Origin: an uncultured Verrucomicrobia subdivision 3 bacterium
GTDB lineage: Bacteria > Verrucomicrobiota > Verrucomicrobiia > Limisphaerales > UBA11358
Reading direction: 5' to 3'
Length of the DNA: 49,999 bases
Assembly (NCBI GenBank): GCA_903870815.1
Contig: CAIQEI010000093.1
Location: 1-49,999, forward strand
Below, one piece after another: positions 34,403 through 46,111 of the stretch (its first letter is position 1; each line of letters starts with the position of its first letter). The notes beneath the pieces were generated by a model that had not been told where the DNA came from, did no database searches, and was given only the letters and a program-made list of their open reading frames with translations. Position numbers and translations under genes: made by a program.

Positions 34403-34540
34403 TAATTGTTACCCATGACCGCTTTCGCCTTTCCCAATCGAGAAGGCGGGCTTGTCGGCGGGGAAGTTTTGTTGCCGGGTGGAAAAATAATTCAAAGGAT
34501 TCCGGCTCCGGGTTTGTCAGAACCTGTAAAACCAAGCCGC

Positions 34541-35092
34541 ATGGCCGACGCCGACGCAGAACTGGTGGGGCAAACTCAAAAGGGCAGCCCGGCGGCCTTT
34601 GAAGAACTGGTTCGCAATCATCAACGCATGATTCATTCGCTGACATTCCGGATGACCGGATCACCGGCCGACGCCGAGGATCTGGCGCAGGAGACGTTCA
34701 TCCGAGCCTATGAGCAGATCGGCGCATTTCGCGGCACGGCGAAGTTTTCCACCTGGCTTTATCGAATCGCGGTCAACACCTGCCTGAACTGGAAACAAAG
34801 CGAGGCGCGTCGATTTCAAATGCAGACGAACTGTACGGAGGAATTTTCCATCCAGCAGAGCAACGGGGAAAATTCAGCGGCGGAAAATGGCGCGTGCCAG
34901 CAGGTGCAATCTGCCCTGCTGAAACTGCCGGCCAAACAGCGCGCGGCGATTGTGCTGACAGTCTACGACGGCTTGAACCACGCCGAGGCCGCGCAAGTGT
35001 TGGGCTGCTCGGAAACCACGGTCTCGTGGCGCGTGTTTGCCGCCCGGCGAAAACTTAAAGGATGGCTTTCAAACAATGGAGGCGCGCGATGA
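34541..35092 (+). CDS. ECF sigma factor heading the GspE/F operon
   Basis: 183 residues from ATG 34541, a typical ECF length (ATG 34415 is also in frame and would add 42 residues). Region 2 spans ~17-90: AAFEELVRNHQRMIHSLTFRMTGSPADAEDLAQETFIRAYEQI...FRGTAKFSTWLYRIAVNTCLNWKQ. Region 4 spans ~125-175: LLKLPAKQRAAIVLTVYDGLNHAEAAQVLGCSETTVSWRVFAARRKL. Its stop overlaps the next gene's ATG (ATGA). As the first gene of a run ending at 40229 it probably controls that unit, perhaps together with distant targets. Confidence 0.93.
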   Translation: MADADAELVGQTQKGSPAAFEELVRNHQRMIHSLTFRMTGSPADAEDLAQETFIRAYEQIGAFRGTAKFSTWLYRIAVNTCLNWKQSEARRFQMQTNCTEEFSIQQSNGENSAAENGACQQVQSALLKLPAKQRAAIVLTVYDGLNHAEAAQVLGCSETTVSWRVFAARRKLKGWLSNNGGAR

Positions 35093-35439
35093 ATGACTTG
35101 GAGCTGGAGGCCAAACTGAAACAAGTATCGCTACCAAAGCGAACGGAGGAATATTGGAATGATTTTCCAGCGCAAGTGAGCTGGCAATTGTCCCGAAGAT
35201 TGTCGCAACCCGGGGTCCGGGCAGGCTGGCTGCCGCAACTTGCCTGGAAGGTCGGCACCGGTTTCGCCAGCGGGCTGGTCGGCTTGGTGATTTTGAGCCA
35301 GCCGTTGAAGGCGGCTTCCGGCGCCATTTTTCAGCAGGAACAATTTGTGCGGCAACACCTGACGGCTCTGCCCGGCCAGCTCCGGGTCCTAATGGCCGAT
35401 GAACACGGCCTGCATTATCTCGTGGCCGAGAAGGAATGA
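35089..35439 (+). CDS. Small membrane protein, candidate anti-sigma factor
   Basis: 116 residues. The N-terminal cytoplasmic part has LEAKLKQVSLPKRTEEYWNDFPAQVSWQLSRRL, followed by one hydrophobic helix at about 56-69 (TGFASGLVGLVILS) and a short tail. Overlap with the sigma gene (ATGA) and a good GGAGG Shine-Dalgarno fit an anti-sigma factor. The zinc-binding anti-sigma signature (H-x3-C-x2-C) is missing. It has the same topology as the protein after the other sigma factor (20632-21156). Function is inferred from position. Confidence 0.65.
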   Translation: MNDLELEAKLKQVSLPKRTEEYWNDFPAQVSWQLSRRLSQPGVRAGWLPQLAWKVGTGFASGLVGLVILSQPLKAASGAIFQQEQFVRQHLTALPGQLRVLMADEHGLHYLVAEKE

Positions 35440-35454
35440 AGGGGGCGCATATTT

Positions 35455-36558
35455 ATGAATCCAACGTTTGACCAGGCCGGGCGCGGTGAAAAAAAGGCGG
35501 AACCGTCCGCGCCGAAAATCCTGGAGCAACTGGTACAGCAGGCCGAACGGGCCGGGGCGAGCGATATCCATTTGCAAATGCGCGGCCGGACGGCGGAAGT
35601 GTCCTTCCGGCTGGACGGCGTCATCACGCCGGGAGCAGAAATATCCGCCGACGTGGCCGAGCGCGTTTTTGGCCGCATTAAATTTCTCGCGCGGATGAAA
35701 ACGTATCAGGAAACGCTGCCGCAGGACGGCCGCATTCCGCACGACGAACTCAAAAGCAAAAACGATATCCGCGTCGCCACTTACCCCACGGTCACCGGCG
35801 AAAAAATCGTGCTGCGGCTGTTCAACCCCGAGACCGCAAAATCACTAGGCGAGCTGGCCTTGCCCGCCGCGGCGAACGACGAACTGGAAAAGTTTCTCCG
35901 CCAAACCACCGGCCTGCTGCTGCTCACCGGCCCGGCCGGCAGCGGCAAAACCACGACGATTTACGCGTGCCTGCGCCGGCTGGCTGAACTCGGCGGACGC
36001 CACATCATCACGGTGGAAGATCCGGTGGAGCAGATTGTTCCCGGCACGATGCAGACGGAAATCAACGAAGCCATCGGCCTGGATTTTGCCCGCGCCGCGC
36101 GGCATCTGCTACGGCAAGATCCGCAGGTTTTGATTCTGGGCGAGATTCGCGACGAGGCCACCGCGCAACTCGCCGTGCGCGCCGGGCTGACCGGGCACCT
36201 GGTCATCTCCACGCTGCACGCCGGCTCGTGCAAAGGCGTTTTCGAGCGGCTGCTGGCGATGTGCGCCGACCATTCCGCGGTGGCCAGCGCGGTGGAACTG
36301 GTATTGAACCAGCGGCTCGTCCGCAAAGTTTGTTCCGCATGCGACGGCGCGGGGTGCGATAGCTGCCTGCGCACCGGCTACAACGGCCGCGTGCCGCTCG
36401 TGGAATGGCTGCGAGTGAATGAAATCTTGCGCGAGCACATCCGCCGGCGCGAACTAACTGCGTTAGCGCCAAGGCAAACGCTTGAAGCCTCGGCGCGTTT
36501 GCTGGTGAACCAGGGCGTGACGAACGAGAAGGAATTCAACCGGGTTTTTGGCTTATGA
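35455..36558 (+). CDS. GspE/PilB-like secretion ATPase without the N-terminal domain
   Basis: 367 residues (GspE/PilB are ~500-570). The cytosolic hexameric ATPase that powers type II secretion or pilus assembly. Residues 22-125 are the N2-type domain (ASDIHLQMRG...RVATYPTVTGEKIVLRLF). Walker A is GPAGSGKT (159-166), the Asp box is HIITVEDPVEQ (183-193), Walker B is LILGEIRDE (226-234), the His box is ISTLHAGS, and the C-terminal zinc module has Cys 293/296/301/304 (CSACDGAGCDSC). The zinc module is a mark of assembly (GspE/PilB) rather than retraction (PilT) ATPases. The GspL-binding N1 domain is absent. Confidence 0.93.
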   Translation: MNPTFDQAGRGEKKAEPSAPKILEQLVQQAERAGASDIHLQMRGRTAEVSFRLDGVITPGAEISADVAERVFGRIKFLARMKTYQETLPQDGRIPHDELKSKNDIRVATYPTVTGEKIVLRLFNPETAKSLGELALPAAANDELEKFLRQTTGLLLLTGPAGSGKTTTIYACLRRLAELGGRHIITVEDPVEQIVPGTMQTEINEAIGLDFARAARHLLRQDPQVLILGEIRDEATAQLAVRAGLTGHLVISTLHAGSCKGVFERLLAMCADHSAVASAVELVLNQRLVRKVCSACDGAGCDSCLRTGYNGRVPLVEWLRVNEILREHIRRRELTALAPRQTLEASARLLVNQGVTNEKEFNRVFGL

Positions 36559-36579
36559 ACAAAAAAATTGGCGATTCAG

Positions 36580-36647
36580 GGTGGGGCGAGGCTCCTGACC
36601 AGCCGTGTTTGGATAAAGCTTCGGCTCGCGAGGACGCTCGCCCCACC
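36580..36647. repeat. Hairpin (REP/MITE-like) element between gspE- and gspF-like genes
   Basis: The right arm 36623-36647 is identical over 25 bp to 20070-20094. The left arm 36580-36605 (GGTGGGGCGAGGCTCCTGAC...) is a diverged inverse copy. It fills most of the 103-bp gap between the ATPase and the first platform protein, and could form a stem that affects downstream expression in the operon. Confidence 0.88.
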
Positions 36648-36661
36648 GAATCAAATGGTTT

Positions 36662-37678
36662 ATGAAAACGGACGAATTTGCATTCTTCAACCAGCAGCTC
36701 GCGGCGATGCTGCGCGACGGCATCCCGCTCGAAGGCGGGCTGCGGCGGCTGTGCCAGGAAATGAAGGCCGGCTCGCTCCGCACCGAACTGCAGGCGCTCG
36801 AAGCCGACCTTGCCAAAGGCACGCCGATGGCCGACGCGATCTCGCCGCGCCGGTTGCCGGAACTTTACAAGCGCATGATTCTGGTCGGCGTCAAAAGCGG
36901 GGACCTACCGGGCGCGCTGACGATGCTGGCGGATTATTTTCAGCGGCAAAACAATGTTTGGATGCGGCTGAAGAGCATGATGACGTATCCGCTGATTGTG
37001 ATGTTCGTCGCCTTTTTGATTTCGCTCCTGCTGGCTTACGCGTGGACCTGCGTGATCGGCCCTTCATTCATGTCCGTTTTTTCAGGGATAGGTGCTATGT
37101 TGCCTTGGGCCACACTTTTTGCGCTTGGCTCGTTGCAAGCCATCTGGGTATTTCCGGTGGCACTTGGAGTTTTATTTCTGCTGCTGATGGCGGTGGTCTT
37201 TGTGCCGGGACTGCGCGGAAAATATCTCTGGCGGCTGCCCGCGTTCAAGGAAGCCACCGTTTCGCGAATTGCGTCATCACTAACCTTGCTGATGAAAAAC
37301 GGCGTAACTTTGTCAGACGCCATCGGCTTGGTGGCACAACTCGAAACCAGCACGGCCGCGACCGCCGACTTGCAGCGGTGGCAGGCAAAACTGGCAGACG
37401 GCACCACAAAGTTCTCCGAAGTCGCCGCCGGCAACCGGCTGATTCCGCCCCTGTTTGTCTGGGTAGTTTCCAGTGCGGGCGAAGACCTGGTCGCCGGCTT
37501 TAATCGCGCGGCGGAAATCTACCATTCGCGCGCCATCTATCGCACCGAGGTGGCGCTGTATTCAATCCTGCCGGTTGCCTCATTATTTCTCGGCGCAGTG
37601 GTTTTATCGCAGGCATTTCTGGTTATCAGCATGTTTCTGCCATTTGTTCAGATGGTGAACAACTTAAGCGGAGACTAA
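36662..37678 (+). CDS. GspF/PilC-like inner-membrane platform protein, first copy
   Basis: 338 residues. A cytosolic helical domain at 1-~105 (FAFFNQQLAAMLRDGIPLEGGLRRLCQEMKAGSLRTELQALEADLAKGTPMADAI...LPELYKRMILVGVKSGDLPGALTMLADYF) is the T2SSF fold with the characteristic GExSGxL-like VKSGDL. Membrane helices lie at ~112-130, ~140-160 and ~165-185, then a second T2SSF domain (SRIASSLTLLMKNGVTLSDAIGLVAQLE) and a last helix. It interacts with the ATPase to assemble pseudopili. It sits directly upstream of a second, different GspF-like gene, which is unusual. Confidence 0.88.
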   Translation: MKTDEFAFFNQQLAAMLRDGIPLEGGLRRLCQEMKAGSLRTELQALEADLAKGTPMADAISPRRLPELYKRMILVGVKSGDLPGALTMLADYFQRQNNVWMRLKSMMTYPLIVMFVAFLISLLLAYAWTCVIGPSFMSVFSGIGAMLPWATLFALGSLQAIWVFPVALGVLFLLLMAVVFVPGLRGKYLWRLPAFKEATVSRIASSLTLLMKNGVTLSDAIGLVAQLETSTAATADLQRWQAKLADGTTKFSEVAAGNRLIPPLFVWVVSSAGEDLVAGFNRAAEIYHSRAIYRTEVALYSILPVASLFLGAVVLSQAFLVISMFLPFVQMVNNLSGD

Positions 37679-37692
37679 TCGGATTGAATAAC

Positions 37693-38850
37693 ATGACTGA
37701 ATTCCCATCATTTTTAATTGCCTTGTTCTGGTACGGGGTTTTTATCCTGCTACCGTGTGGCGCCTTTTCGGTGGTCATCCACTATTTGCTCTCGCTGCCA
37801 ATGCGCCGGCGCGACCGCTCATTATTTTTTCTCGACCTGGTAGAAACTGTTCTGCAACGCGGGCAACCGTTGGAACCTGCCATTCTGGCCGCCGCCGAAA
37901 ATCATGACCGCGCCATCGGGGTCCGATTTTACATGGTGGCGGCGCACCTCGAAGGCGGCTCGCGGCTAGGCGAGGCGCTGGAAAAAGAACCCCGCTTTCT
38001 GCCACCGCAGGTGAACGCCATTCTCCGCGCCGGCGAAAAACTGGGTGACCTTAAAAAAGTTCTGCCGGCCTGCCGCGAAGTGCTACGCGTCGCGCCCGAC
38101 ACTGTCCGCAGCACAACGCATTACATGGTGGCGATCCTTCTGGTGTTTGCGCCAGCCGCCTGCTGGTTGATTGCCCTGCTGTCGGCTTTCGTCGTTCCCA
38201 AGTTCAAAGACGTGGCCGCCGGCATGGGCTTTCAGATTTGGCCGTTCACGCAATTTGTCTTTGCCCTCAATGATTCGCATGTACTGGTCGGTTTTGAAAT
38301 GCTGATATTTTTCGCGCTGCTGGCAGTGGCGGCAATTTACATCGGTGGGCCGGGCCTAGTCCGCTGGTTTCAATTCCGCAGCGTTCCGATCGTGGACTGG
38401 ATCACGTGGCGCGTGCCGTGGAAGCAGAAGAAATTGCAGCGCACCTTTTCCGCCATGCTGGCCGTGCTACTCGACGGCGGGGTGCCGGAAGCCGAGGCGA
38501 TCCGACTAGCGGCAGACGCCACCGCCAATGAGATCTGCCGCCGCCGCGCCCAGCACGTCATCGCCGCGCTGGAAAAAGGCGTCAAGCTTGATGACGCCGT
38601 CCGCGCCATGGACGACACCGGGGAATTTCACTGGCGGCTCACGAATGCCACGCACGCGCACGGTGGATTATTGAACGCATTGCGCGGCTGGCATGAAGCG
38701 CTGGACGCGAAGTCCTTCCAGCAGGAGGAAGCCGCCATGCAAATCTTCACCAGCGGATTGGTTATCTTGAACGGTTTGGTGGTCGCCCTGATTGCCATCA
38801 GCATGTTCGGCATGCTGGTCATGATTTTGAGGCACATGGTGGAGTTATAA
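37693..38850 (+). CDS. GspF/PilC-like platform protein, second copy
   Basis: 385 residues from ATG 37693 (TTG 37684 also in frame). It begins with a membrane helix, then SLFFLDLVETVLQRGQPLEPAILAAAENHDRAIGVRFYMVAAHLEGGSRLGEALEKEPRFLPPQVNAILRAGEKLGDLKKVLPA, a T2SSF domain with AGEKLGDL. Two helices follow, then a second domain (TFSAMLAVLLDGGVPEAEAIRLAADATANEICRRRAQHVIAAL) and a C-terminal helix pair. It is clearly diverged from the first copy, so this is not a recent duplication. The two may form a heteromeric platform. Confidence 0.85.
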   Translation: MTEFPSFLIALFWYGVFILLPCGAFSVVIHYLLSLPMRRRDRSLFFLDLVETVLQRGQPLEPAILAAAENHDRAIGVRFYMVAAHLEGGSRLGEALEKEPRFLPPQVNAILRAGEKLGDLKKVLPACREVLRVAPDTVRSTTHYMVAILLVFAPAACWLIALLSAFVVPKFKDVAAGMGFQIWPFTQFVFALNDSHVLVGFEMLIFFALLAVAAIYIGGPGLVRWFQFRSVPIVDWITWRVPWKQKKLQRTFSAMLAVLLDGGVPEAEAIRLAADATANEICRRRAQHVIAALEKGVKLDDAVRAMDDTGEFHWRLTNATHAHGGLLNALRGWHEALDAKSFQQEEAAMQIFTSGLVILNGLVVALIAISMFGMLVMILRHMVEL

Positions 38851-39236
38851 TGAAACCAAGACTTTCAAAGCCATTGCCAGGGCGACGCACCCGCGGTTTT
38901 CTGGAGGTGGATATGGTCATCGGCCTGGCGATTCTCACGCTGGCCATCGTGCCGCTGGGCTATTCTTTCGCGCGCGAACGACAGGTTTTGAAGATGGAGT
39001 ACGCCCGGAGCGTCGCCAACGAAATCGTGGACGGCGAGATGGAGATTCTCGCCGCCGGGGCCGGCCGGGATCTGCCCGATGGGGCGCAAACGTATTCCGT
39101 TCACGCCGCTTCTGCCGCCCAATTGCCGCCGGGCCATTTTCAACTGACCAAAGCCGGAAACTACCTGCGCCTCGAATGGAAATTCGACGGGAAACACGGC
39201 CTTGGCGTCATCGTCCGCGAAACCACGCTCAGATGA
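38850..39236 (+). CDS. Pseudopilin-like protein with atypical cleavage site
   Basis: 128 residues. The N-terminal RRTRG|FLEVDMVIGLAILTLAIVPLGYSF is a class III signal: basic leader, Gly, Phe at +1 and a long hydrophobic helix. The usual Glu at +5 is Asp, with Glu at +3, so processing or assembly may differ. The rest (EILAAGAGRDLPDGAQ...LRLEWKFDGKHGLGVIVRETTL) fits a small minor-pilin beta domain. The start overlaps the preceding stop (TAATG). Confidence 0.75.
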   Translation: MKPRLSKPLPGRRTRGFLEVDMVIGLAILTLAIVPLGYSFARERQVLKMEYARSVANEIVDGEMEILAAGAGRDLPDGAQTYSVHAASAAQLPPGHFQLTKAGNYLRLEWKFDGKHGLGVIVRETTLR

Positions 39237-39736
39237 GACGGCCGCAACCCATTTCGAGAATGCGCCGGGCGGCGGGAATCATGCTGATTGAATGCATGGT
39301 CTATATCGCCGTGTTCGCCATCCTGCTGGGGATAGGCTTCGCGGCATTTTACTTCTCCTGGGATCACACGCGGGCCTTGATTGGGACAACGGATGAAATC
39401 GCCTCCGCCCTGCACGCCGGCGAACGCTGGCGCGCGGACGTGCGCGGAGCGACCGGAAAGATTTCAGTCGAGATGACGACCTCCGGCGAAGTCGTGCGGA
39501 TTCCGGAAGCGGGGAAAGAAATTATTTATCGCTTTGCATCCGGCGAATTGCGGCGCGAATCCCCGGCCGCAAACATTTCCCAACTGCTGTTGCCGCGAGT
39601 AAAGGCGTCGCAGATGGCGGCGGATGCGCGCGGTCCCGTAACCGCCTGGCGGTGGGAGCTAGAACTGAAGGAACACCGTCGGGAAACCCTTTTACCGCTG
39701 CTCTTCACCTTCGCCGCCGTGCCAAAGCAGCCATGA
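39233..39736 (+). CDS. Pseudopilin-like protein
   Basis: 167 residues from ATG 39233, overlapping the previous stop (ATGA). The N-terminus has a basic leader and the prepilin-type site AAG|IMLIECMVYIAVFAILLGIGFAAF, with Glu at +5, then an acidic/basic globular part (LHAGERWRADVRGATGKISVEMTTSGEVVRIPEAGKEIIYRF...). It resembles GspJ-type minor pseudopilins. Its globular part ends LKEHRRETLLPLLFTFAAVPKQP. Confidence 0.78.
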   Translation: MRRPQPISRMRRAAGIMLIECMVYIAVFAILLGIGFAAFYFSWDHTRALIGTTDEIASALHAGERWRADVRGATGKISVEMTTSGEVVRIPEAGKEIIYRFASGELRRESPAANISQLLLPRVKASQMAADARGPVTAWRWELELKEHRRETLLPLLFTFAAVPKQP

Positions 39737-39954
39737 AGATTTCACGCACACAATCCAATCAGAAACCTGAAAGCGGAATGGCAACGGTCATTTTTATCGC
39801 GCTGCTGGCCATCATGATGATGCTCGTCACCGCGGAGAGTCGCGCGCTTTACCAACTTCATCGCGAGGTGAAATTTTTGGAGCATCAACAAAACAAACGG
39901 CTGAATCCGCCGACAACCAACACGGTGACCGCCGCGGCCACCCCGATCCGATGA
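39733..39954 (+). CDS. Small pilin-like or membrane peptide
   Basis: 73 residues, ATGA overlap with the previous gene. A Lys/Arg/Gln-rich head MKISRTQSNQKPESG is followed by a hydrophobic helix MATVIFIALLAIMMMLVTAES and a coiled segment (LYQLHREVKFLEHQQNKR). The head-Gly-helix layout resembles PilX/GspK N-termini, but the +5 Glu is missing and the globular domain is absent. It may be a truncated GspK-like protein. Confidence 0.6.
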   Translation: MKISRTQSNQKPESGMATVIFIALLAIMMMLVTAESRALYQLHREVKFLEHQQNKRLNPPTTNTVTAAATPIR

Positions 39955-40229
39955 ACAGCATCCCCGCCACCAAGATTAAGATGATGAAAGGCTCCCTCCG
40001 CTGCCTGACGCTGGGATTGCTGGGTTTGCTGCCGCTGATTGGCGTGCCGTTCGCGTTGGCGGCGTTGTGGGCATCCTTTTCGGCACGCCAAAAGGAACGG
40101 CAGTTTTGGAATCCGGCGAAACCGCAACGGATATTGGGATTGATTTGCGCCGCGCTTGGCGCCCTGATCTGGAGCGTAGTGGATACCTTCCTGATTTACC
40201 ACGCTTGCAATGCCTACGCCAATTCGTGA
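39951..40229 (+). CDS. Small two-helix membrane protein
   Basis: 92 residues, ATGA overlap with the previous gene. Hydrophobic helices at ~18-42 (CLTLGLLGLLPLIGVPFALAALWAS) and ~62-82 (ILGLICAALGALIWSVVDTFLIY), with a basic loop between. Last gene of the sigma/GspE/F operon. No family is recognised; the translational overlap suggests it belongs to the same machine. Confidence 0.7.
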   Translation: MNSIPATKIKMMKGSLRCLTLGLLGLLPLIGVPFALAALWASFSARQKERQFWNPAKPQRILGLICAALGALIWSVVDTFLIYHACNAYANS

Positions 40230-40945: not shown

Positions 40946-42010
40946 TTACTTCATCTGCGCCAGGATTTGATCCGTGATGGCTTTCACCGCCGCTTCGGCT
41001 TCAGGGTCGAGACCGATGGTGGGTTCGCCGCTAGCCGGAGCCTGACTGGTCGCACCCGGGCGCCATTCGCCGCTGTCGCAGAGTTCGCATTCTTTCATGC
41101 CGTAGCGCGGGTCCACAAAACCGAGGCTCTGCTTGATATTGAGCAATTCCTTCATCTGCGGACCGGTGAAGGTGTTGATCGGCCGGCCGAGCTGCCCGGC
41201 CACCACAATGGTGCGGCAGTAGGCCTCGATGATCTCCATGCGCCAATAGGCTTCCTCGATGTTGTTGTGGCTCCAGGTCACGACTCCGTGGTTGGACATG
41301 AGGATGGTGTTGTACTGGTCGGTGAGCTCAGCGACGAGCTTGCCCATGTCCGGCGAGCCGGGCGTGCGGTACGGGGCGATGCCAACGGAACAAAAGACCT
41401 CGTACTCCGGCAACATGCAGGTGGGCGGGGCGATGTTGGCCACCGCGAACGCCGTGGCGTAGGGCGGATGGCAATGGCAGGTGGCGACGGCGGTGGGCTG
41501 GCGCTTCATCATCTGCAGGTGCATCAAAATTTCGCTGGTGCGCTTCTTGGTGCCGAGGATCTGGTTGCCCTCGAAATCCACGAGGCACATATCGGACGGT
41601 TTGAGCGAACCCTTACTCACGAGCGTCGGGGTGCAGATGGCGATGTCCTCGCCGACGCGGACGGCCATGTTGCCACCGTTGCCATCCACATAAGCGCGCT
41701 TCCAGAGGCGGTGGCCCATCTCGCAGATCTGCTCCTTCAAATTGTGCGCGTAAGGGGAATTGAAAAAAGCCTCCAATTCGGCCTTGGGCGACTTGGAATT
41801 GAGCTTCTTCGCGGGCGGAGCGAGCGGGTCGCCACTTACCTTGGCGGCGGTGACCGCATACGCGGCAGCGACCACTTTGGCGCCGCTTTTTTCCAGGTCC
41901 TGCAACAGCTCGCGCGCGGAGGGCGTGAGAATGGCGTCCGCGGGAATGCTGACGCCCTGACCGGTGCGGACCATTTCTTGAATATCGCGAACGCTGATGA
42001 CTTGGCTCAT
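40946..42010 (-). CDS. BMC-associated class II aldolase (fuculose/rhamnulose-1-phosphate aldolase-like)
   Basis: 354 residues. Zinc-dependent aldolase core at about 90-295: GNGGNMAVR (110-118), Glu160, CHCHPPYA with His179 and His181, and NHG with His241. An N-terminal ~60-residue extension (ISVRDIQEMVRTGQGVSIPADAILTPSARELLQDLE) is typical of microcompartment aldolases. The C-terminal ~25 residues (LDPEAEAAVKAITDQILAQMK) form an amphipathic helix after a Gly/Ala/Pro linker, a likely encapsulation peptide. A Cys pair CELC lies at 308-311. Expected products are lactaldehyde and DHAP. It is the last gene of the leftward BMC operon. Confidence 0.9.
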   Translation of the reverse strand: MSQVISVRDIQEMVRTGQGVSIPADAILTPSARELLQDLEKSGAKVVAAAYAVTAAKVSGDPLAPPAKKLNSKSPKAELEAFFNSPYAHNLKEQICEMGHRLWKRAYVDGNGGNMAVRVGEDIAICTPTLVSKGSLKPSDMCLVDFEGNQILGTKKRTSEILMHLQMMKRQPTAVATCHCHPPYATAFAVANIAPPTCMLPEYEVFCSVGIAPYRTPGSPDMGKLVAELTDQYNTILMSNHGVVTWSHNNIEEAYWRMEIIEAYCRTIVVAGQLGRPINTFTGPQMKELLNIKQSLGFVDPRYGMKECELCDSGEWRPGATSQAPASGEPTIGLDPEAEAAVKAITDQILAQMK

Positions 42011-42022
42011 ATAAAAATTGGC

Positions 42023-42328
42023 TTAGCCCTTCCACGGGCTGTAAAACATTTCATCCACCAACGCGCAATTGATCGCGTCAATCGGCGGCGACACCTCGAA
42101 CGGCTGGGCGGCTTCCGCGCCTTCCTCGTAACCAATCACATCGCCCACACCGCCACCGATGTCGTCATACACGACCAGACTCGGGTCGGTGCCCATGCCT
42201 GGCTTGGCGTTAATGCCTTTGGCAAACTGTTCGCGGTTGAACGGGCTGACCACCAAAAAACGCCCGCCTTTCAGCAAGTCCACTGCCTTGCTCAACGTTA
42301 CGCGACCAATGACCGTTCCTAGTTTCAA
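42023..42328 (-). CDS. BMC-P (EutN/CcmL) shell vertex protein, copy 1
   Basis: 101 residues. EutN/CcmL family pentamer that caps the vertices of the shell. Begins MKLGTVIGRVTLSKAVDLLKGGRFLVVSP, with the start ...G.V.G.V..... and a body (LVVYDDIGGGVGDVIGYEEG) matching the family core V-x-x-D-x-x-G-A-G-x-G-D-x-V. Gly-rich where others have D-x-x-G-A-G. The start overlaps the stop of the upstream BMC-P gene (ATGA). Confidence 0.92.
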   Translation of the reverse strand: MKLGTVIGRVTLSKAVDLLKGGRFLVVSPFNREQFAKGINAKPGMGTDPSLVVYDDIGGGVGDVIGYEEGAEAAQPFEVSPPIDAINCALVDEMFYSPWKG

Positions 42329-42603
42329 ATTCTCACTCCCGGTTCATGTTCATCCACGATCCCGGTAACGAGCCAGCGAACGGGACTTTTGTCCACGCCC
42401 ACCGCTTTGCGCGCAGCCTTGCCGTCCGACGAAATCACCACCTGCTGGTGCATCCCGGCGCCGAGCGAATCAATCGCGATGACCGGTGCGCCTTCCACCT
42501 GACCTTGGCTGCCAATCGGCTGGCAGATCACCAGCCGCCACGATTCAAAGCTGGGATGCTTCCGGGTCGCAACCAGGTTGCCTTCGACACGGGCCAGGAC
42601 CAT
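42325..42603 (-). CDS. BMC-P (EutN/CcmL) shell vertex protein, copy 2
   Basis: 92 residues. MVLARVEGNLVATRKHPSFESWRLVICQPI followed by VIAIDSLGAGMHQQVVISSDGKAAR and VDKSPVRWLVTGIVD is the canonical EutN/CcmL pentamer sequence. It lies directly after the aldehyde dehydrogenase gene (stop at 42604), with no gap. Three different BMC-P copies in one locus match PVM-type BMCs, where each may occupy different vertices. Confidence 0.95.
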   Translation of the reverse strand: MVLARVEGNLVATRKHPSFESWRLVICQPIGSQGQVEGAPVIAIDSLGAGMHQQVVISSDGKAARKAVGVDKSPVRWLVTGIVDEHEPGVRI

Positions 42604-44112
42604 TTAGTAAATCCTCAAGTTGTCCACCATCACGCAGCGGCGGACGCGCGTGAAAGTGCGCGGATTCGTGATGCCTTCGCCAGTCGGCGTGGCGATGCTG
42701 AAACTCAGATAGCCTTCGCCCCCGAGGCCGAGGCCGGCGGGGGAGGGGCCGTTTTTGACGAACAACGTCGTGTCCAGCGCGCGCGCCATGGCCGTGATGT
42801 TCTCCACATCGTGCGAATGGATGACCGCGGTGTGCTTGTAGTTATGCTCCGATTTCAGCGATTGGGCGATGCCCTCCTCGACGCTTTTCACGCGCACAAT
42901 GGGCAGCATCGGCATCATCTGCTCCTCCTCGACGAAGGGGTGGCTCGCATCGGTTTCGGCAAACAAGAGCTGCGTGCCCGACGGCAAATTCATGCCGGCG
43001 GCCTGCGCGAGCACGGACGGATCCTTGCCGATGTAATCCTTGTTCACGCTGGCGTGGGCGCAACCGCCGCCCTGGCCTTCCTTGAAGGTAAACGCCGCCT
43101 GCGTGAGTTTCTCCAATTGCGACGAGTTCAGTTTGACGCCGCCGTTTTCGGAGAGCTTCTGCATCAGCTTGTCCGCGACCTGGTCGAGGACAAAAACCTG
43201 TTTCTCGCCAATACACAAAAGATTGTTGTCAAACGCCGCGCCGGAAATGATGGCCTTGGCCGCGCGGGTCAGGCAGCAGGTATCGTCCACAAAGACGGGC
43301 GGATTGCCGGGGCCGGCGCAGATGGCGCGTTTACCGGTGAGCATCGCCGCCTTCACGACCATGGGTCCGCCGGTGACGAGCAGCAAGCGGGTATTCTCGT
43401 GCTTGCACAGGGCGTTGAAGGAGTCCAGCGACGGCTTCTCAATGATGCACGCGATGTTCTCGATGCCAGTCTCGCGATAGATCGCCTCGTTGTAGGCGCG
43501 CACGGCCACAGCGGCGCAGCGGGCGGCGTTCGGATGAGCATTGAAGACGACGGCGTTGCCGGCGGAACAAATATTGACGATGTTGCCGCTCAACGTGGGA
43601 ATGGAATGCGTGCTGGGGGTGATCGCACCGACGACACCGAAGGGCGTGTATTCCTCCAGCGTGATGCCGTGATCGCCGCTGCGCGCGTCGGGCCGGAGCC
43701 AGTCCACGCCGGGCACGAGCTTGATAATCTGGAGCTTGGCGATCTTGTGATCGAGGCGGCCGATCTTGGTCTCATCGAGTTCGAGCTTACCCCAAACCTC
43801 GGCATTTTTCTCGGCGAGCGTCTTGATGATCACCTCGATTTTGCGCCGGGTCTCGACGCCTTTCTGCTTCAGCTGCAGATAGGATTCCTGAGCCGCGACA
43901 CAGGCTTCCTCCGCCGTCGCGAAGACGCCGAACTTGCCGCGCAAGGGGACATTCGCCGCCGACGCCGAGGGGGTGCCGCAGCCGCAGTTCGCCGAGGGGG
44001 CGGGCGCGGGCGCCGAGGCAGAGGGTTTGGCGGTGGAGGTGGTTGAGCCGCCCAAACGGCCCAAGACTTCGGCCACCACGTCACGGATCAAAGTTTCATT
44101 GACGGTACTCAT
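42604..44112 (-). CDS. pduP: CoA-acylating aldehyde dehydrogenase, PduP-like, with encapsulation peptide
   Basis: 502 residues. Residues 1-20 (MSTVNETLIRDVVAEVLGRL) are an amphipathic helix, the usual N-terminal encapsulation peptide, followed by an Ala/Pro/Ser linker (~22-55) with CGCG. The core has catalytic Cys300 (AFDNNLLCIGEK), PFGVVGAITPSTHS and AGPGNPPVFVDDT. It turns lactaldehyde (or propionaldehyde) plus CoA and NAD+ into the acyl-CoA inside the compartment. The PduL and acetate kinase of the same operon would then convert this to acid plus ATP. Confidence 0.95.
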   Translation of the reverse strand: MSTVNETLIRDVVAEVLGRLGGSTTSTAKPSASAPAPAPSANCGCGTPSASAANVPLRGKFGVFATAEEACVAAQESYLQLKQKGVETRRKIEVIIKTLAEKNAEVWGKLELDETKIGRLDHKIAKLQIIKLVPGVDWLRPDARSGDHGITLEEYTPFGVVGAITPSTHSIPTLSGNIVNICSAGNAVVFNAHPNAARCAAVAVRAYNEAIYRETGIENIACIIEKPSLDSFNALCKHENTRLLLVTGGPMVVKAAMLTGKRAICAGPGNPPVFVDDTCCLTRAAKAIISGAAFDNNLLCIGEKQVFVLDQVADKLMQKLSENGGVKLNSSQLEKLTQAAFTFKEGQGGGCAHASVNKDYIGKDPSVLAQAAGMNLPSGTQLLFAETDASHPFVEEEQMMPMLPIVRVKSVEEGIAQSLKSEHNYKHTAVIHSHDVENITAMARALDTTLFVKNGPSPAGLGLGGEGYLSFSIATPTGEGITNPRTFTRVRRCVMVDNLRIY

Positions 44113-44119
44113 AATTCAA

Positions 44120-44434
44120 TCACCGCACTTTCGCGCTGAAAATTTCCTTACCAAACACATCCACGCTGTCCACCAGACCAATGATGACGGCGTCCACCGG
44201 GGCTTCCTTCATGCCCGGCGCGAGGCGCGCGGAACTGCCCTGGCAGAAAAGCACCAACTCACCCTCGCCGGCACCGAGGCAATCCACGGCCACAATCGTG
44301 TTCGCCCCGGGACGGAACTTGGTCGGGTCCTTCTCGTCCACGAGCTGCGGGCGGAGCAACAGGAGTTTCCGGCCCGACATGTTCGGGTCTTTCTTGGTGG
44401 CAACCACCTGGCCTTCGACTCGGGCGAGGAACAT
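44120..44434 (-). CDS. BMC-P (EutN/CcmL) shell vertex protein, copy 3
   Basis: 104 residues. MFLARVEGQVVATKKDPNMSGRKLLLLRPQ, then IVAVDCLGAGEGELVLFCQGSSAR and VDAVIIGLVD fit the EutN/CcmL pentamer. The D-x-L-G-A-G-E-G-E motif is intact. It differs clearly from the other two copies, so all three are old paralogues. It lies 7 bp upstream of the PduP-like gene. The leader before its start has AACCCTTTAACGAATCACGAATTT. Confidence 0.95.
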   Translation of the reverse strand: MFLARVEGQVVATKKDPNMSGRKLLLLRPQLVDEKDPTKFRPGANTIVAVDCLGAGEGELVLFCQGSSARLAPGMKEAPVDAVIIGLVDSVDVFGKEIFSAKVR

Positions 44435-44522
44435 AAATTCGTGATTCGTTAAAGGGTTAAATGGTCAAATCGGTTCGGCCCATCCGGCGCAAAGAGGATT
44501 CAACGCTGCAACCATTCAACGA

Positions 44523-44804
44523 TTACTTTTTCTTGGGCAACACCGCTTCGACATCGCCGTGCGGGCGGGCGATGACGTGGACGCTGACGAGCTCGCCCTT
44601 GATGGCCTTGATGGCTTGGGCGCCGGCGTCGGTCGCGGCCTTGACGGCGGCGACATCGCCGACGACACACGCGGTGCAGAGGGCGTTGCCGACCTGGGTC
44701 ACGGGGCCGACGAGTTCGACGTTGGCGGCCTTGAGCATGGCGTCCGTGCCCTCGACGAGGGCGACGAGTCCGCGGGTTTCGATCATTCCAATGGCTTGTG
44801 GCAT
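44523..44804 (-). CDS. BMC-H shell protein, copy 1
   Basis: 93 residues. Hexameric shell facet protein. MPQAIGMIETRGLVALVEGTDAMLKAANVELVG opens the single BMC domain; [36 protein letters not shown] closes it, with the usual K-A and R-P-H. I start it at ATG 44804 (a longer open frame upstream is not conserved). The leader ACCATCAACTAAATAAAACT before the ATG lacks a Shine-Dalgarno. It follows acetate kinase at a 38-bp gap. Confidence 0.97.
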   Translation of the reverse strand: MPQAIGMIETRGLVALVEGTDAMLKAANVELVGPVTQVGNALCTACVVGDVAAVKAATDAGAQAIKAIKGELVSVHVIARPHGDVEAVLPKKK

Positions 44805-44842
44805 AGTTTTATTTAGTTGATGGTTGAGAGATGTGGTTAAAG

Positions 44843-46033
44843 TCAGGGCTGGTTGGTTTCCAAAAGGCGTTTGGTTTCGCGGGCCACGACGAGCTCCTCG
44901 TTCGTGGGAATCACAAAAATCTTCACGGCCGAATCCGCCGCGCTGATGACGGCCTCGGTCGCGCGGGTGGCGCTGTTTTTGGCGGCGTCCAGCTTGATGC
45001 CGAGATTTTCCAAATTGGCGCATATGGCGGCGCGCATTTCCGCGCGGTTTTCGCCGGTGCCGGCGGTGAACACGATTGCGTCCGCGCCGTTCAACTGCAA
45101 AAAGTAGCTGCCGACCCAATGCCGCGCGCTGGCGACGAAAACGTCCAGGGCGAGCTTCGCGTTCGCGTTGCCTTTGGCCGCGGCATCGGCAATGTCACGC
45201 ACGTCGTTGGAAACGCCGCTGATGCCGAGGAGTCCGGATTGCTTGGTGAGCTGCTTTTGCGCCTCGTCAACGCTGAGGCCGAGCGTTTTCACGGCGTAGG
45301 GCAGCGCCTCGGAATCGAGATCGCCAACGCGATTGTTGTGCGGCAAACCGGATTGCGGGCTCATGCCCATGCTGGTGCCGATGGACGCGCCGTTCAAAAT
45401 GCCGGTCACACTGGAACTGCCGCCGAGATGGCAGGAAATCACGCGCAGCGGCGCGCCGGAAATTTTCGAGGCACCGTGATGAACGTAAAGCTGCCGGGCG
45501 CTTTCGGCGACATCGGGCCGGTGGAGCAATTCCGCCGAGCGTTCGGCGATGAACTTGTGGCTCGCGCCGTGGAAGCCCCAGCGGCGCACGCCGATTTGCA
45601 ACCACGAATCCGGCACAGCGTAGCGCTGCGACGCCTCCGGCGCGAACTGGTGGAACGCGGTTTCAAACAATCCGATGAGCGGAACCTTGGGCATCCGCTG
45701 CGCGAACAGCTTAATGCCGGTGATGTACGGAGGATTGTGCGCGGGCGCGAGGCCGTTGTAATCGGTCATCGCCTGCAACACGAGCTCATCTAGCCGGACG
45801 CAGCCGGTGATGTTTTTGGCGATGATGGTCTTGAAACCAACGGCGTTCAAATCGCTTTCGCCGGCAATGGCGCCGGCTTTTTTCAGTTCGGCAAGGCAGT
45901 CCTCGATCGCCTTGGGATAATCGGTGACACGCTCAAAACCGCCCTTATGCAAAAGGCGTTCACCGCCGTTCGAGAAATCGAACAGCCGCCACTTGAGCGA
46001 GGTCGAGCCGATGTTGGCGACGAGAATCTTCAT
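44843..46033 (-). CDS. ackA: Acetate/propionate kinase-type enzyme within the BMC operon
   Basis: 396 residues from ATG 46033. ASKHA kinase with VANIGSTSLKWRLFDF (the phosphate-1 motif, N-x-G-S-x-S-x-K), the HHGASKISGAPLRVISCHLGGSSSVTGI block and FTAGTGENRAEMRAAI. It makes ATP from the acyl-phosphate produced by PduL, giving lactate or acetate. It is embedded between two BMC-H genes, an uncommon spot for a kinase. N-terminal residues differ from housekeeping AckA, as in other PVM loci. The 78 bp upstream hold an inverted repeat. Confidence 0.93.
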   Translation of the reverse strand: MKILVANIGSTSLKWRLFDFSNGGERLLHKGGFERVTDYPKAIEDCLAELKKAGAIAGESDLNAVGFKTIIAKNITGCVRLDELVLQAMTDYNGLAPAHNPPYITGIKLFAQRMPKVPLIGLFETAFHQFAPEASQRYAVPDSWLQIGVRRWGFHGASHKFIAERSAELLHRPDVAESARQLYVHHGASKISGAPLRVISCHLGGSSSVTGILNGASIGTSMGMSPQSGLPHNNRVGDLDSEALPYAVKTLGLSVDEAQKQLTKQSGLLGISGVSNDVRDIADAAAKGNANAKLALDVFVASARHWVGSYFLQLNGADAIVFTAGTGENRAEMRAAICANLENLGIKLDAAKNSATRATEAVISAADSAVKIFVIPTNEELVVARETKRLLETNQP

Positions 46034-46111
46034 TAAATGCGGATTTCGGGATGCAGAGTGCGGAATTTTCGGCGCGCGGTTATCCCGCACTCCGAATTCC
46101 GCGTTCCGCAC
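46034..46111. repeat. GTGCGGAATT/AATTCCGC repeat between BMC genes
   Basis: The segment contains GCAGAGTGCGGAATTTTCGG and, reversed, CCCGCACTCCGAATTCCGCG, and ends TTCCGCAC just before the TAA of the upstream BMC-H gene. It is a repeat-rich spacer that can fold on itself. No gene is visible. Confidence 0.65.

What the first reader, a model, noticed from the sequence alone, without database searches (positions are those of the whole stretch)
34541..40229. Compact GspE/GspF/pseudopilin operon under its own ECF sigma factor
Eight more genes, mostly overlapping or closely spaced, follow an ECF sigma factor: candidate anti-sigma, N1-less GspE/PilB ATPase, two diverged GspF-like platforms, three pilin-like proteins and a two-helix protein. 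There is no secretin, major pilin or prepilin peptidase. Two different platform proteins with one ATPase is unusual and suggests an undescribed minimal pseudopilus machine, possibly recruited at a signal sensed by the sigma factor.
Basis: partly seen in the sequence, partly recalled or inferred. Interest (0 to 1): 0.68.

Follow-up and report, generated by a model that had tools for sequence, protein, structure and literature searches.

The report
Minimal pseudopilus machine with paired platforms
A group of Verrucomicrobiota bacteria carries a seven-gene motor, kept in the same order across dozens of genera, that looks like the engine and tip of a protein-secretion piston but encodes two different membrane platforms and no shaft protein, so how it builds its filament, and what it does, is an open and testable question.

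Summary
Window 34541-40229 encodes an ECF sigma factor, a one-helix partner, a GspE/PilB-type ATPase lacking N1, two full-length GspF-type platforms, three pilin-like proteins and a two-helix protein. E-F1-F2-p1-p2-p3-p4 form a conserved unit: 60 of 87 loci keep E-F1-F2-p1-p2-p3, mostly with p4; most others are cut by contig ends. F2 occurs in about 96 of 245 genomes of the order, but in only one other genome of 387 sampled across the phylum.

The order matches the T2SS operon E-F-(G-H)-I-J-K. p2 folds like GspJ (Z 12.5), p1 most resembles GspI (Z 7.0, top six matches), p3 resembles the N-terminal helix of GspK without its head. A second platform stands where gspG-gspH would be. Both platform families are old, adjacent and duplicate together, suggesting a heteromeric platform.

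No major pilin, secretin or peptidase belongs to the unit in any lineage; the genome has one peptidase, several secretins and about 36 pilin genes elsewhere. The sigma pair is an add-on (15 of 69 testable loci) with a conserved promoter-like motif found once in the genome. I call it a new, T2SS-related variant of the type IV filament superfamily. Function is inferred, not shown.

The parts
34491..34518 (+). Candidate ECF-type autoregulatory promoter, TTCAAAGGAT-N15-GTC
   Evidence: Present at fixed spacing upstream of sigma in 15 of 15 sigma-bearing loci and conserved at third codon positions; one perfect site in the whole genome; a second copy further upstream in two relatives, outside the sigma frame
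34541..35092 (+). ECF sigma factor (183 aa; frame open upstream to ATG 34415)
   Evidence: Sigma70_r2 8.3e-22, Sigma70_r4_2 8.2e-15; TIGR02937
35089..35439 (+). Candidate anti-sigma factor, 116 aa, one TM segment (residues 51-69)
   Evidence: No family match; overlaps the sigma stop; seen only beside sigma; hydropathy peak 1.62
35455..36558 (+). E: GspE/PilB-type assembly ATPase without the N1 domain, 367 aa
   Evidence: T2SSE 1.9e-93; Walker A/B, Asp and His boxes and four Zn cysteines conserved in 20 relatives; own clade 100/100; matches the N2-to-C region of GspE/PilB/PilF structures
36559..36661 (.). 103-bp gap with palindromic REP-like element GGTGGGGCGAG..CTCGCCCCACC
   Evidence: Sequence; eight similar sites in the genome, none with the control pattern
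36662..37678 (+). F1: GspF-type platform, two T2SSF domains, 3 TM, keeps the TM1 Tyr-Pro pair
   Evidence: T2SSF 2.6e-27; Y109 and P110 invariant in alignment A2; TM scan and alignment to E. coli GspF
37684..38850 (+). F2: second GspF-type platform, two T2SSF domains plus an extra N-terminal TM (4 TM), lacks the TM1 and TM3 proline pairs in the window copy
   Evidence: T2SSF 8.7e-21; alignment A1; tree separates F1 and F2, each 99-100%
38850..39236 (+). p1: GspI-like minor pseudopilin, 128 aa
   Evidence: D/E at +5 in 75 of 75 relatives; AF2 pLDDT 91; XcpV/EpsI/GspI are the six best structural matches, Z 6.2-7.0
39233..39736 (+). p2: GspJ-like minor pseudopilin, 167 aa
   Evidence: E at +5 in 70 of 77; AF2 pLDDT 94; EpsJ/XcpW/GspJ Z 10.8-12.5, unrelated folds at or below 5.0
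39733..39954 (+). p3: GspK-like N-terminal helix only, 73 aa, no acidic residue at +5
   Evidence: +5 is V/I/L/M in 14 of 14; aligns with the N-terminal helix of E. coli GspK
39951..40229 (+). p4: two-helix membrane protein of unknown role, 92 aa
   Evidence: Conserved family (A7), no curated family above cut-off, weak DUF4190 hits in 3 of 16 members; 2 TM

Best explanation
It is a stand-alone, T2SS-related type IV filament assembly machine. Shown here: conserved gene order, conserved catalytic residues, predicted folds of p1 and p2, class III-type cleavage motifs, adjacency and joint duplication of F1 and F2. Inferred: the ATPase E drives a mixed platform of F1 and F2; p1, p2 and p3 (I-, J- and K-like) are processed by the genome's single prepilin peptidase and assemble in the inner membrane as the initiating tip; the shaft is then built from one of the many pilins encoded elsewhere, and the filament stays in the periplasm or uses a secretin encoded elsewhere. 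In this lineage the ECF sigma/anti-sigma pair switches the operon on at an envelope signal through a dedicated promoter.
For: Conserved order in 87 distinct loci. p2 has the GspJ fold; p1 is GspI-like; p3 resembles the GspK helix. Order collinear with E. coli gspE-F-G-H-I-J-K. Motor residues conserved. F1 and F2 are separate clades, 12 sequences each, adjacent throughout, and the F1-F2 pair is duplicated as a unit in G537 and L066. One peptidase with both catalytic Asp motifs, several secretins and about 36 N_methyl pilins elsewhere in the genome. Minor pseudopilins start assembly and are interchangeable between T4P and T2SS (PMC7248040); peptidases are shared between systems (PMC6668835). Unique promoter-like site.
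Against: No dedicated major pilin identified; which of the 36 is used, if any, is unknown. The p1/GspI match is of moderate strength (Z 7). No evidence for F1-F2 contact beyond genomics. No evidence that a filament forms or crosses the outer membrane. Presence is patchy even within the genus (9 of 17 sampled genomes).
Confidence: 0.5

Rival explanations
1. Shaftless or self-sufficient variant: the machine builds only a short membrane-anchored stub from p1, p2 and p3, with p1 (about the size of a major pseudopilin) as the repeating subunit, and works inside the periplasm without a secretin.
For: No major pilin or secretin in the unit in any of 87 loci; p1 is well conserved and always keeps an acidic +5 residue; p3 lacks the GspK head that would restrict it to a tip.
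Against: p1 and p2 look like the I and J tip pair, which in T2SS start rather than build the shaft; plenty of other pilins exist in the genome.
Confidence: 0.25
2. A DNA-uptake or competence-type pseudopilus of a diderm, analogous to the ComG operon (N1-less ATPase, platform, small pilins, no retraction ATPase, no PilM/GspL).
For: The ComGA model scores 239 bits on E; both platforms match ComGB more weakly; same compact ATPase-platform-pilin order.
Against: E scores higher with the GspE and HofB models than with ComGA and misses the ComGA cut-off of 300; p1 and p2 match GspI and GspJ; no competence gene nearby; patchy within a genus.
Confidence: 0.1
3. An accessory module that only re-equips the genome's own T4P or T2SS (for example gives it another tip), not a machine of its own.
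For: Other PilB/GspE, PilC and secretin genes are present elsewhere; minor pilins are interchangeable between systems.
Against: It carries its own full motor and two own platforms, E forming a clade on a very long stem apart from the resident ATPases, which an accessory tip set would not need.
Confidence: 0.1
4. A decayed T2SS operon without function.
For: Missing G, H, C, D, L and M and the GspK head.
Against: Conserved catalytic residues over divergent relatives, purifying selection on every gene, conserved order in dozens of genera.
Confidence: 0.03

Closest known systems
Type II secretion system, gspE-F-G-H-I-J-K segment
   Same: Gene order E-F-..-I-J-K; ATPase and platform families; p2 and p1 folds; p3 helix without +5 Glu as in GspK
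   Different: No G, H, C, D, L or M in the locus; ATPase lacks N1 (the GspL-binding domain); second full platform; GspK reduced to about 73 aa; extra two-helix protein p4
Gram-positive competence pilus (comG operon)
   Same: N1-less ATPase, platform without N-domain (F1), compact ATPase-platform-pilin operon, no secretin or GspL
   Different: Two platforms; no ComGC-like major pilin; pilins resemble GspI and GspJ; diderm host
Tad and Epd-like pili (TadB/TadC)
   Same: Two adjacent platform genes served by one ATPase
   Different: TadB and TadC have one T2SSF domain each (gene fission, PMC6668835); F1 and F2 have two domains each. E is GspE/PilB-type, not TadA
Type IVa pilus
   Same: ATPase/platform superfamily; core minor pilins PilV, PilW and PilX correspond to I, J and K
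   Different: No PilT, PilM-N-O, PilQ or PilA in the locus

Membership tests
Type IV filament superfamily | GspE/PilB-type assembly ATPase | tested here: met
   T2SSE 1.9e-93; PDB matches to GspE and PilB at 1e-86 or better; tree places E with PilB/GspE, not PilT
Type IV filament superfamily | Integral membrane platform with T2SSF domains | tested here: met
   Both F1 and F2, two stretches each
Type IV filament superfamily | Pilins with class III signal (Gly, then Glu/Asp at +5) | tested here: met
   p1 D/E in 75 of 75, p2 E/D in 73 of 77; cleavage itself not tested
Type IV filament superfamily | Major pilin in the cluster (needed by the generic MacSyFinder model, PMC6668835) | tested here: not met
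   Window plus 86 relatives, 1.17 Mb: no shaft-type pilin in the conserved unit. Two relatives have a helix-only mini-pilin beside it; not general
Type II secretion system | GspI and GspJ minor pseudopilins | tested here: met
   Predicted folds of p1 (Z 7.0, moderate) and p2 (Z 12.5)
Type II secretion system | GspK with large inserted head domain | tested here: not met
   p3 is 73 aa against 327 aa in E. coli GspK
Type II secretion system | GspG major pseudopilin, GspD secretin, GspL/GspM in or beside the operon | tested here: not met
   tblastn with the genome's own secretins and GspL-like and PilO-like proteins finds none beside the unit; one secretin-like hit further off in L084. Secretins exist elsewhere in the genome
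[quoted passage not shown]
   Needs experiment
Com pilus (ComGA-GG) | ComGA equivalog ATPase | tested here: not met
   NF041000 238.9 bits, cut-off 300; GspE model scores 309.6
Com pilus (ComGA-GG) | Major pilin (ComGC type) in operon | tested here: not met
   No shaft-type pilin in the conserved unit in 87 loci
Tad pilus | Two platforms with a single T2SSF domain each, TadA ATPase | tested here: not met
   Two stretches in both platforms; TadA-type model 33.7 bits, cut-off 373
ECF sigma/anti-sigma operon | Sigma and membrane anti-sigma adjacent with autoregulated promoter | tested here: inconclusive
   Adjacent pair and conserved bipartite motif; no anti-sigma family match and no transcription data

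The most novel reading that the evidence does not exclude
A further family within the type IV filament superfamily, found so far almost only in one order of Verrucomicrobiota, whose motor drives an obligate heteromer of two full-length platforms and builds a filament or stub from I/J/K-type tip pilins alone, with no shaft pilin and no secretin.
Probability: 0.25. Interest if true: 0.85.

Novelty: new variant of a known kind. Interest (0 to 1): 0.62.

Why it matters
A genomic survey of the superfamily searched with a generic model that needs a major pilin in the cluster and concluded that few new families with ATPase, platform and major pilin remain (PMC6668835). This unit lacks that pilin in the locus, so such a model would pass it by. 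It offers a natural system in which initiation tip, motor and platform are split from the shaft, and in which the question of platform stoichiometry (dimer or trimer, PMC10790770) becomes testable because the two platform subunits differ in sequence.

Tried and rejected
The search for related loci with the F2 alignment failed (too variable); p1 was used instead. Sequence searches of p1 and p2 against PDB gave nothing useful for p1 and only N-terminal pilin helices for p2. Foldseek alone gave no significant hit; the identification of p1 and p2 rests on the structural realignment. Conserved neighbours as a clue to function: none shared by most loci; flanking genes differ between lineages. Number of pilin genes against presence of the unit within the genus: no clear relation in a small sample. 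Helix-only mini-pilins as the missing shaft: found beside the unit in two genomes, but order-wide only 3 of the 11 strongest genomes have F2, against about 96 of 245 overall, and none was found in the window's genome, so rejected as the general partner. Sigma N-terminal extension as coding: not shown. One promoter-pattern search used the wrong spacing, corrected.

Full report
What is there. The window lies on contig C93 of a 3.17 Mb, 96% complete genome. Named relatives that carry the unit are mostly Limisphaerales / Verrucomicrobia subdivision 3 metagenome bins (a few record titles name other organisms and are probably mislabelled bins, which is my inference). The ATPase is 367 aa and its matches to solved GspE/PilB cover the N2 region onward, so the N1 domain is missing.

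It is a conserved unit. A search with F2 in 245 genomes of the order gave strong matches (E at or below 1e-20, my count of the rows) in about 96, including 9 of the 17 sampled genomes of the same genus. I fetched neighbourhoods and kept 87 distinct loci including the window. Sixty keep E-F1-F2-p1-p2-p3 in that order, 43 of them with p4 recognised; most of the others are cut by contig ends; a few are real variants (E placed after p4 in L080 and L098; a unit without p1-p3 in L085; p1-p2-p3-F1-F2-p4 in L149). Genes to either side differ between lineages, so the unit runs from E to p4. A profile of F2 found only one other genome among 387 drawn from the phylum (G537), with E-F1-F2-p1-p2-p3-F1-F2. 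That search scored only a few candidates per genome, so it is a lower bound.

Selection. Pairs with relatives give pN/pS of 0.15-0.35 for E, F1 and F2, and 0.18-0.63 for p1-p4. In E the motor motifs and the four zinc cysteines are conserved over 20 sequences down to 48% identity. These look like working proteins.

What the parts are. The gene order equals the E. coli gsp operon E-F-G-H-I-J-K with G and H absent and a second F in their place. The AlphaFold model of p2 (pLDDT 94) aligns with the GspJ proteins EpsJ, XcpW and E. coli GspJ at Z 10.8-12.5, while unrelated folds stay at 5.0 or below. The model of p1 (pLDDT 91) has its six best matches to XcpV, EpsI and GspI, Z 6.2-7.0, the next unrelated one 5.9; with Z under 8 this is good but not proof. 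p1 has Asp or Glu at +5 in 75 of 75 relatives and p2 Glu or Asp in 73 of 77, whereas p3 has V, I, L or M in 14 of 14, the pattern of GspK, whose E. coli member also lacks an acidic residue there. p3 aligns with the GspK N-terminal helix but has none of the head.

Two platforms. F1 and F2 each carry two T2SSF domains, unlike TadB and TadC, which carry one each and arose by fission (PMC6668835). In a tree with resident and E. coli platforms, F1 and F2 form separate clades (99-100% support), so the split predates the spread of the unit. F1 looks like a usual platform without the N-domain and keeps Tyr-Pro in TM1. F2 has an additional N-terminal TM and, in the window copy, lacks the proline of both the TM1 and TM3 pairs that line the channel of the PulF trimer (PMC10790770). 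They are adjacent throughout and were duplicated as a pair at least twice. A mixed platform is the simplest reading; it is inferred.

The ATPase family stands on a stem of 3.35 changes per site apart from the PilB/GspE proteins of the same genome and from E. coli GspE and HofB. It groups with assembly, not retraction, ATPases.

What is missing. tblastn with the genome's own prepilin peptidase, secretins, GspL-like and PilO-like proteins against 87 loci (1.17 Mb) found only a secretin-like match in one locus, L084, away from the unit. No shaft-type pilin sits in the unit. Elsewhere the genome has one prepilin peptidase with both Asp motifs, several secretins, a cluster on C19 that reads as PilB/GspE, GspL-like, PilO-like and secretin (by reading, with the secretin match) and about 36 N-methyl pilins. 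Sharing is plausible: peptidases are shared between systems, and minor pilins are interchangeable between T4P and T2SS and start assembly (PMC6668835, PMC7248040).

Regulation. The sigma/anti-sigma pair is beside E in 15 of 69 testable loci, so it is a lineage add-on. All 15 share TTCAAAGG.T-N15-[GT]TC a few tens of bases before the likely sigma start, conserved at synonymous sites, and the strict form occurs once in the whole genome, at 34491-34518. Two relatives have a second copy further upstream, outside the sigma frame. This looks like a dedicated ECF promoter; it is not proven, and the same bases could also encode an N-terminal extension of sigma.

Literature. Searches for Verrucomicrobia with pseudopilins, GspF and GspE, and for Limisphaerales with secretion, found no description. 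Only open-licence papers were searched.

Verdict. A real, conserved, apparently undescribed T2SS-related variant of the type IV filament superfamily. Membership in T2SS proper is not claimed, because GspG, GspD, GspL/M and the GspK head were tested and not met in the locus. It probably works like a T2SS/T4P assembly motor with its own initiation tip; the shaft, the exit and the substrate are open.

Noticed in passing
L114:2286-2420; L081:10536-10682; L238-L247: A family of helix-only mini-pilins (about 40-50 aa, consensus GLTLTELLCVIAIIAILAALYL..IARAF.RVKKFL) in at least 12 genomes of the order; beside the unit in two, and in L114 behind a copy of the sigma promoter motif, but not associated with the unit in general.
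   Followed up: partly
34415-34540: Sigma frame open 42 codons upstream with MTAFAFPN and KIIQRI segments conserved in many relatives; could be an N-terminal extension overlapping the promoter-like motif.
   Followed up: partly
36559-36661: Palindromic REP-like element between E and F1; eight similar sites in the genome.
   Followed up: partly
L172:4631-6113: The genome's only detected prepilin peptidase carries an insertion of roughly 220 residues between its two catalytic Asp motifs.
   Followed up: no
40946-46111: Minus-strand cluster with class II aldolase, EutN/CcmL vertex protein, aldehyde dehydrogenase and acetate kinase: looks like a bacterial microcompartment locus.
   Followed up: no
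L085 3898-7891; L066 750-3225; L169 7746-14677: Variants of the unit: E-F1-F2-p4 without pilins, and tandem extra F1-F2 pairs without their own ATPase.
   Followed up: partly
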